Source: Fibrobacter succinogenes (lineage in GTDB: Bacteria; Fibrobacterota; Fibrobacteria; Fibrobacterales; Fibrobacteraceae). Taken from it: 64,000 nt of DNA. Numbering within the stretch: the first letter of the stretch is position 1; each line of letters begins with the position of its first letter. The notes beneath the pieces are model-generated. The model saw only the letters and a list, made by a program, of their open reading frames with translations, had not been told where the DNA came from and did no database searches. Shown piece after piece: positions 1-57,689 of this stretch. Made by a program: the position numbers and the translations under genes. The stretch covers positions 1 to 64,000 of the forward strand of contig CACVQR010000006.1 of the NCBI GenBank assembly GCA_902756345.1, given 5' to 3'.

Positions 1-1
1 A

Positions 2-115
2 GCGAATGGATTGGTTGATTACCGTTATTCATATTTTATGTATGATAGGATTCATGATAAAAACTTTGGCCTTCCCGTCCGCTGCGTAAAGAATTATTTG
101 TCGGAATCTAGGTGA
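2..115 (+). CDS. FISUMP (TIGR02145) protein, C-terminal part only
   Basis: An open frame entering from the left edge encodes about 37 residues and ends in NFGLPVRCVKNYLSESR before TGA. GLPVRCVKN is the typical end of the Fibrobacter succinogenes major paralogous domain; the two complete copies in this window end ASVRCVKDY and GLSVRCVKNR. The 5' part lies outside the window, so signal peptide and linker cannot be judged. The function of the family is unknown; members are usually secreted or lipid-anchored. A micro-ORF with a LEPR motif follows 70 bp downstream on the same strand, as at the other FISUMP genes here. Confidence 0.8.
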   Translation, partial: ANGLVDYRYSYFMYDRIHDKNFGLPVRCVKNYLSESR

Positions 116-152: not shown

Positions 153-172
153 AGGGCTTTGAGAAAAGCTCT
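153..172 (+). other. Hairpin between FISUMP stop and LEPR micro-ORF (locus 1)
   Basis: AGGGCTTT (153-160) pairs with AAAGCTCT (165-172) with one G-T wobble, loop GAGA. It follows the AT tract AAATTTTAAACAAAAAAC and ends 13 nt before the ATG at 186. The same layout with a different stem sequence occurs at 5565-5586, 8795-8814 and 56476-56492. There is no clean T-run, so a simple terminator is not the obvious reading. Confidence 0.65.
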
Positions 173-185
173 ATGAGAATTATTT

Positions 186-278
186 ATGTCAAACAAGAAC
201 GTTAAGAACAACAAGAAAAATCGTCGTAACAACTACAAAATTGAGTCTCTTGAACCGCGCTTGATGATGGACGCTTAA
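186..278 (+). CDS. LEPR-motif microprotein, 30 aa (locus 1)
   Basis: ATG at 186 opens a 30-codon frame: a lysine/asparagine-rich basic start (MSNKNVKNNKKNRRN), then NYKIESLEPRLMMDA and TAA. IESLEPRLMMDA matches the LEPR-XLL motif, which in other bacteria marks the N terminus of very large surface or secreted proteins and has no settled function. Here the frame stops right after the motif and no passenger follows. GAG 9 nt upstream is a weak ribosome-binding site. A homologous ORF with a good ribosome-binding site lies at 5410-5550. It could be a real microprotein or the decayed 5' end of a large surface protein gene. The motif match is clear; expression is inferred. Confidence 0.6.
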   Translation: MSNKNVKNNKKNRRNNYKIESLEPRLMMDA

Positions 279-5409: not shown

Positions 5410-5550
5410 TCAACGACACATTTTCTTCCGCCTTAGGGCATTCATCTCCGGTTGTCTTGCCGCACTTGATGGCAGGCGCGGTTCAAGAGCTTCAAGAGTG
5501 AAATTTTTACGATTTTTCTTATTCTTGTTGTTTTTTTTGTTGTTGGACAT
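5410..5550 (-). CDS. LEPR-motif microprotein, 46 aa (locus 2)
   Basis: ATG at 5550 with AGGAG 7 nt upstream opens a 46-codon frame. A Lys/Asn-rich start (MSNNKKNNKNKKNRKN) is followed by FTLEALEPRLPSSA, a textbook LEPR-XLL core (LEALEPRxLLSA), then a short tail that runs into a dispersed repeat shared with 56384-56420. It is homologous to the 30-aa ORF at 186-278. It lies 90 bp downstream of the FISUMP gene on the same strand, separated by a perfect hairpin. The good ribosome-binding site favours translation. No passenger domain follows. Role unknown. Confidence 0.7.
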   Translation of the reverse strand: MSNNKKNNKNKKNRKNFTLEALEPRLPSSAARQPEMNALRRKKMCR

Positions 5551-5564
5551 AGAAGAACTCCTAA

Positions 5565-5586
5565 GATTCCGCCCCTCAGCGGAATC
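5565..5586 (-). other. Hairpin between FISUMP stop and LEPR micro-ORF (locus 2)
   Basis: Perfect 8-bp stem GATTCCGC (5565-5572) / GCGGAATC (5579-5586), loop CCCTCA. On the minus strand it follows AAGTTTAACAAAAAAAC and lies 14 nt before the ATG at 5550, overlapping no T-run. Same position but different sequence at the other three loci. Confidence 0.7.
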
Positions 5587-5639
5587 TTTGTTTTTTTGTT
5601 AAACTTTTTGGATTTTAGGCCTAAAGAAGGCGGAGAGAA

Positions 5640-6929
5640 TTAATAGTCTTTAACGCAGCGAACGGAAGCGCCGTACCTTTTTTGATTACCCCCTGCCAGA
5701 TAAGCATCATCAGAATACACAGCTCCACCTCTACATGTAGCTGCGTCCACGGCTTCATATTCTGTAGGAAAATCAAATAGTGATCCATATCCAAGGTTTT
5801 TGAACACAACCAATTTATTTCCATCCATTCTATTCAAACGATAGCCTGTTGCAATTAGGCTCATTCCGGTAAGATTTCTTCCTCCGACCAACGAAAAGGA
5901 AATTTCTGATTTTATAGTATTTGATCGTTCAATTTCACTTACGCCAACGTCTGAAGCATAAGATGCCGCAAGCAATTCCCTTTCGGTCATTACATGCCAG
6001 CCACTCGGGCAAATACCTTGATGGAAACCGTCTCCATCAGTGTCAATCAAATCGGCACAATTTTTACTGTTACATTCATACGGCAAAGCCATCATTTCAG
6101 CCCACTGGTACAAGCCGCCCCACCAGTCATTGCAATACTCAATGCTGTCGTTATAGCAGTATATTTCAACCTTTGTGTCGTCTTCTTGCTCTTCTGTACC
6201 AGCGACCATCTTTTCATGATATTTAAGATTCTGGGCAAATACAGTAAAAGCTAGATGGACACTATCGGGGCCATACTTGTTATCAATATTAATTGTTGCG
6301 TACTTTGTTCCGTCACGAGTATCCGTAAATTCGCCATAGCTCATATTATAGTGCAACGGACTCGGCAAAGAGTCATAGCCCCGGCTGCTGCTGCTCTTGG
6401 GTGTGGAACTAGAAGAAGGCGGAATATAGAGAGTCCATACGCCATTAACACATTCAGCATACTCCCCTCCAATAATTTTTTGCACTCCATCTTTGGGACA
6501 CGGACCACCCATAACAGCCTTAGCACTTGATGAAGAACTAGCAGAACCACTCGGCACGACACTTGAAGACGATTGTTTCACTTCTTCACTGCTGCTGGAC
6601 TTGGCATCCGAAGAAGACGGCTTTACCGAGGAACTAGATTCCTTCGCCTTTTCTTCCGACGAACTGGAATTTTCATTTTTTTTAGAAGAAGAGGAGGACT
6701 TCGACTTTTCTACCGAGGAAGAAGACTTTTCCTTATTGGAGTTCTTTTGCGAACTCGAGGAATTCTTGGAAACTTCACCACTGCTAGAGCTGGTATCGTC
6801 ACAATCTTCGTTCTGATCCTCACAGGGGCGGGGATCTGGGGAAACAGAAGATGAAGAGGAATCGCCTCCGCATGCAACAAGCATGGTCAGGAGAACGGAC
6901 AGGGCAAGGACACTTTTAAAAATCTTCAC
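5640..6929 (-). CDS. FISUMP (TIGR02145) lipoprotein, 429 aa
   Basis: GTG start at 6929 with GGAGG 7 nt upstream; the ribosome-binding segment CCGGAGGTCTTCTGTGAA is shared exactly with the FISUMP gene at 57689. Lipoprotein signal KIFKSVLALSVLLTMLVACG (Cys20), then about 130 residues of Ser/Lys/Glu poly-serine linker. The major paralogous domain occupies about 190-429: YGEFTDTRDGTKYATI, the NLKYHEKM-type segment, CYNDSIEYCNDWWGGLYQWAEMMALP, then ICPSGWHVMTERELL and the end GASVRCVKDY. The Cys pairs suggest disulfides outside the cytoplasm. The family is largely confined to Fibrobacter and relatives; function unknown. A LEPR micro-ORF follows downstream. Confidence 0.9.
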   Translation of the reverse strand: MKIFKSVLALSVLLTMLVACGGDSSSSSVSPDPRPCEDQNEDCDDTSSSSGEVSKNSSSSQKNSNKEKSSSSVEKSKSSSSSKKNENSSSSEEKAKESSSSVKPSSSDAKSSSSEEVKQSSSSVVPSGSASSSSSAKAVMGGPCPKDGVQKIIGGEYAECVNGVWTLYIPPSSSSTPKSSSSRGYDSLPSPLHYNMSYGEFTDTRDGTKYATINIDNKYGPDSVHLAFTVFAQNLKYHEKMVAGTEEQEDDTKVEIYCYNDSIEYCNDWWGGLYQWAEMMALPYECNSKNCADLIDTDGDGFHQGICPSGWHVMTERELLAASYASDVGVSEIERSNTIKSEISFSLVGGRNLTGMSLIATGYRLNRMDGNKLVVFKNLGYGSLFDFPTEYEAVDAATCRGGAVYSDDAYLAGGNQKRYGASVRCVKDY

Positions 6930-6986: not shown

Positions 6987-7053
6987 AATTGTCCCTTCCG
7001 GCTATTGACAGGGGAGTTCAATTTATATATATAAGTGTTCAAATGAGCAAAAA
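6987..7053 (+). repeat. 67-bp direct repeat, copy 1 (promoter plus start codon)
   Basis: AATTGTCCCTTCCGG... to ATGAGCAAAAA, identical to 8907-8973 except for one base at 7033/8953. It contains TTGACA (7005-7010), TATATA (7028-7033) and an ATG at 7043. Here the ATG leads only into an 18-codon dead-end frame (7043-7096), whereas in copy 2 it starts the RhuM gene. Confidence 0.85.
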
Positions 7054-7231: not shown

Positions 7232-8566
7232 ATGCCGAAATTTACATTTAAACGCAAAATATACGCAAAAATGCTCGAATGGAAGTCCGAAAGCAAGGGA
7301 CGGACTGCCTTACTTATTGAAGGAGCCCGCCGAATCGGGAAATCCACCATTGTCGAAGAATTCGCCATTAGGGAGTACGAAACATACATCCTTATCGACT
7401 TCAATAAGGCCTCCGAAGAAGTCAAATCCCTGTTCGACGACCTCATGGACTTGGACTTCATTTTCCTGCGACTACAGGCGATTTTCCACAAGTCACTGAA
7501 ATCTCGCAATTCAGTAATCATCTTCGACGAAGTCCAAAAATGCCCCAACGCGCGGCAGGCCATAAAGTACCTGGTCGCAGACGGACGCTACGACTACATC
7601 GAAACGGGGTCGCTTATCAGCATCAAGAAAAACACGGAAAACATCACCATTCCCAGCGAAGAAGACCGACTGCAAATGTACCCCATGGATTTCGAGGAAT
7701 TCCGCTGGGCAATGAATGACGAAGTGACCATACCCGCGCTGAGCAAGTTCTTCGAAAGGAAGTTGCCGCTCGGTGCCGCATTCAGGACGACCATGCGCGG
7801 CCTACGGCTTTATGCGCTAGTCGGCGGAATGCCACAAGCCGTCGTCGAATATCTAGAAACAAATGACCTGCGCAAGGTCGATGCTATCAAACGTAAAATC
7901 ATAAAGCTTTACACCGAAGATTTTTTGAAATTGGACCCGTCAGGGAATATGTCAAAACTGTTTGAAAGCATTCCCGCACAACTCAGTCGTGGAGCGAACC
8001 GCTACGTGACATCTAGCATCATTGGAAAAGTCGGAAAAGCTGGAGAAAACAGCCTGCTGCAACAACTCGAAGACAGCAAAACAGTGAATGTCTGCTACCA
8101 TTGCGACGATCCCAATGTGGGCATGGCCCTGACACAGAATCAAGAGCGGTTCAAATTATTTGTCTGCGACACGGGGTTGTTCGTGACACTTGCATTTTGG
8201 GACAAAAACTTTACCGAAAATGTCATCTACGAACGAATGCTTTCGGATAAACTGTCCGCAAACCTGGGCTACGTTTACGAGAATCTTGTGGCTCAGATGC
8301 TGACAGCCAAGGGCGATAAGCTTTTTTACCACACCTGGGCACAAGACGAAAAACACAATTACGAAATTGACTTCATCCTTTCGCGCGGGAAAAAGATTTG
8401 CCCTATCGAAGTCAAGTCCTCCGGATACAGGACACACGCTTCGCTCGATGCCTTCTGTGAAAAGTTCAGCGAACGGATACAAGACCGCTACCTGATATAC
8501 ACCAAGGACTTGGGCCACAACGAACAAGTGCAGCATATCCCGACCTGTTTTACCTTGTTCATTTAG
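7232..8566 (+). CDS. AAA (AAA_14) ATPase with DUF4143 nuclease-like domain
   Basis: 444 aa; GGGGGA 8 nt before the ATG. N-terminal P-loop ATPase: Walker A EGARRIGKST (about 30-39), Walker B SVIIFDEVQ (about 92-100), sensor ETGSL. The C-terminal DUF4143 region (about 200-420) ends with YEIDFILSRGKKICPIEVKSS, a D-E-K arrangement like a degenerate restriction-endonuclease fold. Such proteins are common, often multi-copy, accessory genes in gut bacteria and archaea; their substrate is unknown. It sits between two copies of a direct repeat and beside a FISUMP remnant, so it belongs to the variable part of the genome. Confidence 0.88.
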   Translation: MPKFTFKRKIYAKMLEWKSESKGRTALLIEGARRIGKSTIVEEFAIREYETYILIDFNKASEEVKSLFDDLMDLDFIFLRLQAIFHKSLKSRNSVIIFDEVQKCPNARQAIKYLVADGRYDYIETGSLISIKKNTENITIPSEEDRLQMYPMDFEEFRWAMNDEVTIPALSKFFERKLPLGAAFRTTMRGLRLYALVGGMPQAVVEYLETNDLRKVDAIKRKIIKLYTEDFLKLDPSGNMSKLFESIPAQLSRGANRYVTSSIIGKVGKAGENSLLQQLEDSKTVNVCYHCDDPNVGMALTQNQERFKLFVCDTGLFVTLAFWDKNFTENVIYERMLSDKLSANLGYVYENLVAQMLTAKGDKLFYHTWAQDEKHNYEIDFILSRGKKICPIEVKSSGYRTHASLDAFCEKFSERIQDRYLIYTKDLGHNEQVQHIPTCFTLFI

Positions 8567-8721: not shown

Positions 8722-8781
8722 TTAGGCGTCCATTTTGTAGTTCTTGCGAGTGGAATTTTTCTTATTGAACTTCTTGGACAT
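8722..8781 (-). CDS. Micro-ORF, LEPR motif deleted (locus 3)
   Basis: ATG at 8781, GAGGG 9 nt upstream, 19 codons: MSKKFNKKNSTRKNYKMDA and TAA. Compared with locus 1 (RNNYKIESLEPRLMMDA) it reads as the same peptide with IESLEPRLM deleted in frame, keeping NYK and MDA. It follows a FISUMP 3' remnant and a hairpin (8795-8814) like the intact loci. Likely a decayed member; whether it is still translated is unknown. Confidence 0.5.
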   Translation of the reverse strand: MSKKFNKKNSTRKNYKMDA

Positions 8782-8794
8782 AATAACCCTCAAT

Positions 8795-8814
8795 GGCATT
8801 CTGTACGGAATGCC
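8795..8814 (-). other. Hairpin before micro-ORF (locus 3)
   Basis: Perfect 7-bp stem GGCATTC (8795-8801) / GAATGCC (8808-8814). On the minus strand it follows AAAATTTTAAACAAAAAA and ends 13 nt before the ATG at 8781. Confidence 0.65.
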
Positions 8815-8860
8815 TAGTTTTTGATTTTTTGTTTAAAATTTTACAGTTTAAAAATGGTGG

Positions 8861-8905
8861 TTATTCAACCATTACACAACGGACAGAAAAACCCTGAGTC
8901 TTATA
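8861..8905 (-). pseudogene. FISUMP C-terminal remnant
   Basis: The last 14 codons before TAA at 8861 read YKTQGFSVRCVMVE, matching the family end (GxSVRCVKx). Upstream the frame runs straight into the 67-bp direct repeat (8907-8973), so the rest of the gene has been replaced. The downstream hairpin and micro-ORF are still in place. Confidence 0.7.
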
Positions 8906-8906
8906 C

Positions 8907-8973
8907 AATTGTCCCTTCCGGCTATTGACAGGGGAGTTCAATTTATATATATTAGTGTTCAAATGAGCAAAAA
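8907..8973 (+). repeat. 67-bp direct repeat, copy 2, with leaderless promoter for RhuM
   Basis: TTGACA (8925-8930), 17-bp spacer, TATATT (8948-8953), then 9 nt and the ATG at 8963, with no Shine-Dalgarno. One mismatch to copy 1 at 6987-7053. The left border coincides with the break in the FISUMP remnant. Confidence 0.8.
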
Positions 8974-56334: not shown

Positions 56335-56463
56335 TTAATAAGAGTCATTATTGCGAAGAGCGCTTCGGCTCTGCCTGCACCGCAGCTCACATGGCCTCGG
56401 GCTTCGCCCGACGAATGTTCGCTTAGCGGCCAGGCATTCGCCGTCGCTTTTCTTCTTAGACAT
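56335..56463 (-). CDS. MSKK micro-ORF without LEPR motif (locus 4)
   Basis: ATG at 56463, AGGGGG 6 nt upstream, 42 codons: MSKKKSDGECLAAKRTFVG then a basic Cys/Arg-rich tail that reads through dispersed repeat sequence shared with 5371-5412. It occupies the same place as the LEPR ORFs: 12 nt after a perfect hairpin, downstream of a FISUMP gene. The motif itself is gone. Probably decayed; translation uncertain. Confidence 0.45.
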   Translation of the reverse strand: MSKKKSDGECLAAKRTFVGRSPRPCELRCRQSRSALRNNDSY

Positions 56464-56475
56464 ATAACCCCCTGG

Positions 56476-56492
56476 GCTTTTCAAGGAAAAGC
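56476..56492 (-). other. Hairpin between FISUMP stop and micro-ORF (locus 4)
   Basis: Perfect 7-bp stem GCTTTTC (56476-56482) / GAAAAGC (56486-56492), loop of 3. On the minus strand it follows AAGATTTTAAACAAATTAAT and ends 12 nt before the ATG at 56463. Confidence 0.65.
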
Positions 56493-56522
56493 ATAATTAA
56501 TTTGTTTAAAATCTTGCTATGA

Positions 56523-57689
56523 TTAGCGGTTTTTCACGCAACGGACAGACAGGCCGTTCGGCTTGTCAGAATTCATTTTTAAATCGACTCTACTTATACC
56601 CCGCGCAGCCGACCCCAACGATATCGAAGTTACATTAGTGGCAGATGATTCAAACGGTAATCTGTAACGTCCATAAACTCTAATATATTGGTATTCCCCT
56701 GTTATGGCCAAAGCAATTCCCCCATACAAGGCCGAGAATCCTTGGCTGTTGCTCCCGCCATTTACTTTCGACACAAAACCATAATCATCTTCACTTGCCC
56801 CCTTCAAGGCGCCCCATTCTTGCCTATTCATCACGTGCCACCCTTCCGGACAGATCCCCTGTATCTTCAAACGATCCCATTCATGATCGTATTCGCGGCC
56901 CGGGAATATCGAGTCCGGGCAGGCGGGAGTCGTTCCCGTCCATACGCTGTCGCATGCCTTCGGAAGGCCCATCGCCTCGCTCCAGCTGTACAGCCCGCCG
57001 AACCCGTTGTCGCAGAACCACGGGTCGTCGTCGTAGCAGTATTTTTCGGGAGCATTGTCGTCAAACACCGTCGTATTTAACGGGATTTGTTTTCCATAGT
57101 TAAGGTTGGTCGCGAATACGGTCATATTTTCAAAGCCATCGTAACCGAATTTCGTGTCTAAAATCCTGTACTTTTGCCCATCACGCGGGTCAACAAATTC
57201 CCCATACGAATACTTGCTGTTGTAAAGACTGTCCATGTTGAAATAGCTGCTGGTGGGCACGGACGAGGAACTGGAACGAACATACAGAACATAGAAGCCA
57301 TCTTTACAGATATATTCCAATTTTTTGCCAGATTCTCGATCGGTCCTGTCTAGAATTGAGCCTTCACTAGAACAAGGCTTAGTCCAAACAGAACTTGACG
57401 AAGTCCCCGAGCTGCTCGACTTAACGCTGGACGAGGCGGGACTGGATTCACCGCCACTGCTCTTGGAATCCGTAGACGAACTGGATTTCGCAGAAGAAGA
57501 ACTGTTCTTCGATGAGGACGAGACGCTGCTGCTGGATTTGTCTCCATTGCCGTCACTGGTCCCGTCGCCGCTGCTCAGGATTTCGCTAGACGAAGATTCC
57601 TTTTCCGGTTCAACGAAGCTGCTGCTGTCATCGTCACCGCAGGCGACGAACAAAACAGCAGGAAGCAACAACGCAGCAAAATATTTCAC
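56523..57689 (-). CDS. FISUMP (TIGR02145) lipoprotein, 388 aa
   Basis: GTG start at 57689 with GGAGG 7 nt upstream (CCGGAGGTCTTCTGTGAA, identical to the FISUMP gene ending at 5640); the longer frame from a TTG just reads through this ribosome-binding site. Lipobox LPAVLFVACGDDD (Cys17). Poly-serine linker (about 25-110) with SSSS-K/S repeats, then the major paralogous domain about 160-388: YGEFVDPRDGQKYRILDTK, CYDDDPWFCDNGFGGLYSWSEAMGLP, GICPEGWHVMNRQEWGAL and the end GLSVRCVKNR. Surface lipoprotein of unknown function. Confidence 0.9.
   Translation of the reverse strand: MKYFAALLLPAVLFVACGDDDSSSFVEPEKESSSSEILSSGDGTSDGNGDKSSSSVSSSSKNSSSSAKSSSSTDSKSSGGESSPASSSVKSSSSGTSSSSVWTKPCSSEGSILDRTDRESGKKLEYICKDGFYVLYVRSSSSSVPTSSYFNMDSLYNSKYSYGEFVDPRDGQKYRILDTKFGYDGFENMTVFATNLNYGKQIPLNTTVFDDNAPEKYCYDDDPWFCDNGFGGLYSWSEAMGLPKACDSVWTGTTPACPDSIFPGREYDHEWDRLKIQGICPEGWHVMNRQEWGALKGASEDDYGFVSKVNGGSNSQGFSALYGGIALAITGEYQYIRVYGRYRLPFESSATNVTSISLGSAARGISRVDLKMNSDKPNGLSVRCVKNR

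What the first reader, a model, noticed from the sequence alone, without database searches (positions are those of the whole stretch)
5410..6929. FISUMP genes are followed by a hairpin and a micro-ORF in a fixed layout (four loci)
At 2-278, 5410-6929, 8722-8905 and 56335-57689 the order is the same: FISUMP 3' end, an AT tract containing TTTAAAC or GTTTAAC, a 7-8 bp hairpin, 12-14 nt, then an ATG opening MS(K/N)K or MSNN. Stem sequences are unrelated between loci while pairing is kept, which argues for selection on structure. The two complete FISUMP genes also share an identical ribosome-binding and GTG start segment. This looks like a repeated module: lipoprotein plus RNA hairpin plus basic microprotein. 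The hairpin could couple or attenuate translation of the micro-ORF, or mark a recombination site that spreads the modules.
Basis: partly seen in the sequence, partly recalled or inferred. Interest (0 to 1): 0.8.

Follow-up and report, generated by a model that had tools for sequence, protein, structure and literature searches.

The report
Orphan leaders of giant secreted proteins
In Fibrobacter, the tiny genes found behind certain surface-lipoprotein genes are the leftover front ends (a known "LEPR" leader) of giant ~5,000-residue secreted proteins, still carrying the RNA hairpin that stands before the giant gene, and lipoprotein-plus-leader units appear to be swapped between giant genes and headless stubs at one precise point.

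Summary
The layout is real but is not a property of FISUMP genes in general: about 18 of ~96 in this genome carry it. The micro-ORF is the N-terminal leader of LEPR-XLL giants (NCBIfam NF012209, above cut-off for locus 1). Across 80 Fibrobacter genomes the leader is bimodal: of 150 parsed matches, 84 lie in frames of 62 aa or less and 34 begin frames of 3,700-8,200 aa. A sampled giant has RTX repeats. 90 of 98 leaders lie directly behind a FISUMP gene. Twelve stub-giant pairs share FISUMP + spacer + leader DNA at 87-99.5% identity; in 11 the identity stops 13-30 nt after the LEPR codon. The window's genome has stubs only; RTX repeats and a companion M50 protease are absent. The hairpin belongs to one leader subclass (35/39 versus 6% of shuffles; other leaders 1/46), covaries, and also precedes giants. 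It has a U-tract only on the antisense strand and sits 12-13 nt before the ATG, so it is a 5'-leader element or an antisense-facing terminator. Two of four window micro-ORFs are deleted or fused to repeats. Best reading: orphan leaders left by recombination that joins FISUMP-leader modules to giant bodies or drops the body.

The parts
1..115 (+). 3' end of a FISUMP lipoprotein gene, cut by the contig end (window = contig C6 from base 1); ends ...RCVKNYLSESR*
153..172 (+). hairpin AGGGCTTT-GAGA-AAAGCTCT, 13 nt before the ATG
186..278 (+). LEPR-XLL leader stub MSNKNVKNNKKNRRNNYKIESLEPRLMMDA*; followed by a repeat (TTAACCCCACCCCAAAATCAACC...) shared with stubs of other genomes
   Evidence: NF012209 18.9 bits, cut-off 17
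5640..6929 (-). FISUMP-domain protein gene (429 aa, GTG start)
   Evidence: TIGR02145 65.8 bits, PF09603
5563..5588 (-). hairpin AAGATTCCGCT-GAGG-GGCGGAATCTT, 12 nt before the ATG; terminator-like on the opposite strand
5410..5550 (-). LEPR leader stub; native up to LEPRL, then a dispersed repeat read in frame
   Evidence: 13.3 bits, below cut-off; identical leader DNA with a different 3' flank in L134
8861..8908 (-). 3' fragment of a FISUMP gene, broken at 8908/8909
8795..8814 (-). hairpin GGCATTC-CGTACA-GAATGCC, 13 nt before the ATG
8722..8781 (-). leader stub with a 24-nt deletion that removes LEPR (MSKKFNKKNSTRKNYKMDA*)
56523..57689 (-). FISUMP-domain protein gene (388 aa, GTG start)
   Evidence: TIGR02145 69.3 bits, PF09603
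56476..56492 (-). hairpin GCTTTTC-CTT-GAAAAGC, 12 nt before the ATG
   Evidence: not the minimum-energy structure when folded alone
56449..56463 (-). remaining leader codons MSKKK, then the repeat GCGACGGCGAATGCCTGGCCGC (56426-56447), which occurs 8 times in the genome, each time behind a FISUMP gene

Best explanation
The module is the 5' part of a two-gene unit: a FISUMP lipoprotein gene followed by a giant RTX protein gene whose first ~30 codons are a basic LEPR-XLL leader. In one subclass of these units a hairpin stands in the spacer directly before the ribosome-binding site of the second gene. Recombination breaks the unit at one point, just behind the LEPRLMM(D) codons. FISUMP + spacer + leader are kept, while the giant body is replaced by a stop codon within a few codons, a dispersed repeat, or the next FISUMP cassette in a tandem array. 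In the window's genome the giant bodies and their companion protease are gone, so the stubs there are most likely relics or a reserve of lipoprotein-leader modules, not working microproteins. Shown: identity of the leader, the unit order, the break point, the covarying hairpin and its presence before giants, and the absence of RTX repeats and M50 gene here. Inferred: that the break comes from homologous or microhomology recombination, that the hairpin acts on the giant gene's mRNA, and that LEPR is an export or processing leader.
For: Leader matches NF012209 above cut-off. Bimodal frame lengths: of 150 parsed matches, 84 are <=62 aa and 34 are >=3,700 aa. 51 of 59 stubs stop 5-11 codons from the start of LEPR; random deletions in a ~5,000-codon gene would almost never do so. 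90 of 98 leaders follow a FISUMP tail. Twelve stub-giant pairs over 300 bp at 87-99.5% identity, 11 of them breaking at +13 to +30 from the LEPR codon, one pair within one genome (L125/L126). A giant has RTX repeats; an M50 protease gene follows some giants. PF00353 and the M50 gene are absent from G000 and G044 (stubs only) and present in G010 and G077, where every listed RTX match lies in a giant frame that begins with LEPR. Hairpin in 35/39 of the motif class, also before giants L112, L123, L144, L158 and, outside the motif class, L165. Tandem arrays in contigs of several genomes and in the closed genome G094.
Against: Stub leaders that share a stub junction still show far more synonymous than replacement change (for example dS 0.67, dN 0.01), which a pure relic should not, unless the divergence arose while they were attached to giants. 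The role of LEPR (export or processing) is taken from gene neighbourhood, not tested. About 25 matches have frames of 63-300 aa, so not every break is at the leader end; five loci share a 146-aa form with a conserved end. Most genomes are draft assemblies and stubs are often near contig ends.
Confidence: 0.72

Rival explanations
1. Hairpin, reading 1: it acts in the sense mRNA as the 5' leader element of the LEPR cistron. It lies between an A-rich unpaired tract and the SD, so transcription passes, and it protects or insulates the start of the giant mRNA after processing in the A/U tract.
For: Stem end to ATG is 12-13 nt in 30 of 35 and 9-14 in all; SD-like purines between stem and ATG in 32 of 35 and no U-run after the stem in the sense direction; pairing kept through sequence change; present before giants.
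Against: No RNA data; RNase sites are not predictable here; other LEPR leaders do without it (1 of 46).
Confidence: 0.45
2. Hairpin, reading 2: it is an intrinsic terminator that faces the other way and stops antisense transcription from running out of the giant gene into FISUMP; perhaps derived from a bidirectional terminator of FISUMP that lost its sense U-run.
For: 34 of 35 have a U-tract on the antisense side against 22 of 35 for the tract 14 nt further upstream, and 1 of 35 on the sense side; the consensus scan calls the locus 2 hairpin a terminator on the + strand only.
Against: The tight spacing to the ATG is not explained; the flank is A/T-rich anyway; no evidence of antisense transcripts.
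Confidence: 0.35
3. The micro-ORFs are functional free peptides (decoys, signals or peptide substrates of the M50 protease family found next to some giants).
For: Replacement changes are rarer than synonymous ones between stub leaders; the companion M50 protease resembles daptide and epipeptide maturation proteases.
Against: The M50 gene is missing from stub-only genomes G000, G044 and G094; two of four window copies are broken or fused to repeats; tails are unrelated.
Confidence: 0.12
4. The hairpin is a recombination or mobility site that spreads the modules.
For: Modules do recombine, and an ~85-bp repeat has inserted in the 3' arm of the hairpin in several genomes with AAAAGC at both ends.
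Against: Cassette arrays with the clearest shuffling lack the hairpin; break points cluster behind LEPR, not at the hairpin; own genome has only two tyrosine recombinases and no reverse transcriptase.
Confidence: 0.06

Closest known systems
LEPR-XLL domain proteins (NCBIfam NF012209, 'LEPR-8K')
   Same: Basic N-terminal leader ending LEPRLMMDA at the start of giant RTX proteins; a giant ~8,000-aa LEPR-XLL protein with RTX and serralysin domains is reported in Vibrio (PMC10868602)
   Different: Here most copies are orphan leaders of about 30 codons without a body, behind FISUMP lipoprotein genes; no description of this was found in the paper searches
FISUMP / Fib_succ_major (TIGR02145, PF09603)
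   Same: The upstream gene is a member above the curated cut-off
   Different: Only a minority of family members carry the hairpin and LEPR leader
Polymorphic secreted-protein loci with swapped domains and orphan modules (CdiA, Rhs, MafB type; from general knowledge)
   Same: Exchange at a fixed motif, orphan modules in tandem arrays, interspersed toxin-antitoxin-like genes
   Different: Here the constant body is the C-terminal giant part and the exchanged part is the upstream lipoprotein gene plus the leader; no toxin or immunity role shown
Diversity-generating retroelements
   Same: Hairpin behind the 3' end of a variable surface protein gene
   Different: No reverse transcriptase in the genome

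Membership tests
LEPR-XLL domain (NF012209) | HMM score above the curated cut-off of 17 bits | tested here: met
   18.9 bits (window 186-278), 21.1 (C10:75103), 21.3 (C5:1706); window locus 2 only 13.3
LEPR-XLL domain (NF012209) | Leader of a long secreted protein | tested here: not met
   Not met for the window copies (stubs); met for 34 of 150 parsed genus matches
FISUMP (TIGR02145) | Domain score above cut-off 41.65 | tested here: met
   65.8 and 69.3 bits
Diversity-generating retroelement | Reverse transcriptase in the genome | tested here: not met
   0 matches to PF00078 in the 99.2% complete genome
Integron cassette array | Dedicated integron integrase near the array | tested here: not met
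   Own genome has only two tyrosine recombinases, none in the window; attC folding not tested
Intrinsic terminator, sense strand | U-run directly after the stem | tested here: not met
   1 of 35
Intrinsic terminator, antisense strand | U-run directly after the stem | tested here: met
   34 of 35 by sequence, window locus 2; termination itself not testable here
Known Rfam RNA family | Covariance-model match at gathering score | tested here: not met
   Only one tRNA in the window

The most novel reading that the evidence does not exclude
The FISUMP-leader cassettes are a reserve in a shuffling system: an array cassette (lipoprotein plus matching LEPR leader) is copied by homologous recombination in front of a giant RTX body, changing which surface lipoprotein is made with the giant protein, much as silent cassettes feed an expression site in antigenic variation.
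Probability: 0.25. Interest if true: 0.78.

Novelty: new variant of a known kind. Interest (0 to 1): 0.55.

Why it matters
FISUMP proteins are a very large paralogous surface family of these rumen bacteria (about 96 genes here) with no known function. Linking a subset of them to giant RTX proteins through a conserved LEPR leader gives that subset a testable partner, and the stub-giant pairs give a natural series for asking how giant secreted proteins are gained, swapped and lost. The LEPR-XLL leader itself has, as far as I know, no demonstrated function.

Tried and rejected
DGR: rejected, no reverse transcriptase. Giant bodies with their 3' ends retained (stub tails FAV*, AVE*, R*/H* being giant C-termini): rejected, giants end in other sequences. 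Giant body as an island that integrates into an empty LEPR site: rejected for the FAV type, because 18 of 18 copies of the FAV tail in 13 genomes coincide with LEPR stubs and none sits alone at the far side of a giant. DNA-level site-specific recombination at LEPR: weakened, since the LEPR codons vary freely at synonymous positions and the own genome has only two tyrosine recombinases. Hairpin as recombination site: disfavoured, see rivals. RNAalifold on the MAFFT alignment gave no structure, so a half-swapping test was used instead. A first parse of the FISUMP genes with wrong locus orientation was discarded and repeated, and a first motif class that was too narrow was widened. Several domain scans failed on wrong reading frames and were repeated.

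Full report
What was checked. The four loci were read directly. Each has a FISUMP 3' end, an A/T tract, a short stem, an SD-like stretch and an ATG. The two complete FISUMP proteins are TIGR02145/PF09603 members. The window lies in a 3.36-Mb genome (27 contigs, 99% complete), contig C6 from base 1. Its closest named relatives in the genome collection are MAGs of Fibrobacter succinogenes.

What the micro-ORF is. The peptide of locus 1, MSNKNVKNNKKNRRNNYKIESLEPRLMMDA, scores above the curated cut-off of NF012209, the LEPR-XLL domain. The own genome has ten copies at E <= 10, mostly behind FISUMP genes. With an alignment of eight copies (A1), 42 of 80 genus genomes have matches. Of the 150 frame lengths I parsed from that list, 84 are at most 62 aa and 34 are 3,700 to 8,237 aa. 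The same leader is thus either an orphan or the start of a giant protein. One giant (4,852 aa) has RTX calcium-binding repeats; an M50 protease related by profile to daptide and epipeptide proteases follows some giants. A published Vibrio giant of about 8,000 aa has the same layout: LEPR-XLL at the N-terminus, RTX at the C-terminus (PMC10868602).

How the unit is built. Of 98 distinct leaders fetched, 90 follow a FISUMP tail; most gaps are roughly 15-150 nt. Conversely only about 18 of ~96 FISUMP genes in the own genome have it, several only as remnants.

Where it breaks. 51 of 59 stubs stop 5-11 codons from the start of LEPR, with recurring tails: LEPRLMMDA*, LEPRxMMDFAV*, LEPRLLMAAVE*, LEPRLH*, LEPRLR*. 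Twelve stub-giant pairs share FISUMP, spacer and leader over 0.4-1.4 kb at 87-99.5% identity, and in 11 of 12 the identity stops 13-30 nt after the LEPR codon. One pair lies in one genome (G077, L125/L126). Giant bodies can also be the same behind different FISUMP genes (L118/L173). The window locus 2 leader is identical at DNA level to one in G044 and departs from it four bases after the LEPR codons. Tandem arrays of FISUMP-leader cassettes with a near-identical 5' part and different 3' parts occur in seven or more genomes, including a closed one (G094), with AAA ATPase and toxin-antitoxin-like genes between cassettes (named from sequence, not scanned).

State of this genome. RTX repeats (PF00353) and the M50 gene are absent from the window's genome and from G044, both of which have only stubs; in G010 and G077 every listed RTX match lies in a giant frame that begins with LEPR. 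In the window, locus 3 has lost LEPR by a 24-nt deletion, and locus 4 keeps five codons before a repeat. That repeat occurs eight times in the genome and each time behind a FISUMP gene.

The hairpin. A class of leaders was defined by the A/T motif alone. 35 of 39 have a strong stem ending 9-14 nt before the ATG, against 6.3% of dinucleotide shuffles; leaders outside the class give 1 of 46. Joining the 5' half of one leader to the 3' half of another lowers the mean stem score from 18.2 to 11.3 (SD of the mean 0.67, maximum of 1,000 permutations 13.4), so the two arms covary. This uses hairpins found by search, and the sequences are related, so it is strong but not a calibrated probability. RNAalifold on a plain alignment shows nothing because the arms shift register. 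The class includes giants, so the hairpin is a feature of the unit and not of the micro-ORF. One of 35 has a U-run behind the stem in the sense direction, 34 of 35 in the antisense direction, and the consensus scan calls locus 2 a terminator on the + strand. The stem ends 12-13 nt before the ATG in 30 of 35. I weigh a sense 5'-leader role slightly above an antisense-facing terminator; the sequence cannot decide. No Rfam family matches.

Selection on stubs. Pairs of stubs with shared 3' junctions show many more synonymous than replacement differences (for example 11 versus 1), though some pairs are near parity. Either stubs are under selection or their leaders diverged while attached to giants and were moved later; the exchange shown above makes the second possible.

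Verdict. The micro-ORF is the orphan leader of giant LEPR-XLL RTX proteins, the hairpin is part of the giant gene's leader region in one subclass, and the module recombines at a precise point behind LEPR. The parts are known families; their linkage, the orphan-leader arrays and the covarying hairpin were not found in the literature that could be searched.

Noticed in passing
6988-7052 and 8909-8970: Direct repeat of about 62 bp (one mismatch) flanking a 1.9-kb segment with an AAA ATPase-like gene (7232-8566) and the FISUMP 3' fragment; the second copy is the leader of a RhuM-like gene (named from sequence, not scanned).
   Followed up: no
L094, L143, L162, L168, L067; own C6:244533, C8:111024, C6:250480: A repeat of about 85 bp (GTGCTAA...GACAAAANGCTTGCNTTTTG...GGCGTC) inserted in the 3' arm of the hairpin, with AAAAGC or a similar hexamer on both sides; several insertions at the same place.
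   Followed up: partly
56426-56447 and seven other places in the genome: Repeat GCGACGGCGAATGNCTGGCCGC occurs 8 times in 3.36 Mb, each time directly behind a FISUMP gene, cutting the leader at different points but always after A-rich AAAG.
   Followed up: yes
L061, L135, L151, L221, L224: FISUMP-leader arrays carry single genes between cassettes that look like AbiEii-type nucleotidyltransferases, PIN-domain proteins and AAA ATPases (read from sequence, not scanned).
   Followed up: no
L061:1706-2146 and four or more other loci: A recurrent 146-aa LEPR protein (MNADVVLEDFEDNISNVSTT...LKLDFDVLAA) of unknown role, between stubs and giants in size, with a conserved end.
   Followed up: no
L137, L155, L186, L189 upstream of the FISUMP gene: A second short LEPR-like segment (PYSIERLKPRFMVDA) ends just before the FISUMP gene of several giants.
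   Followed up: no
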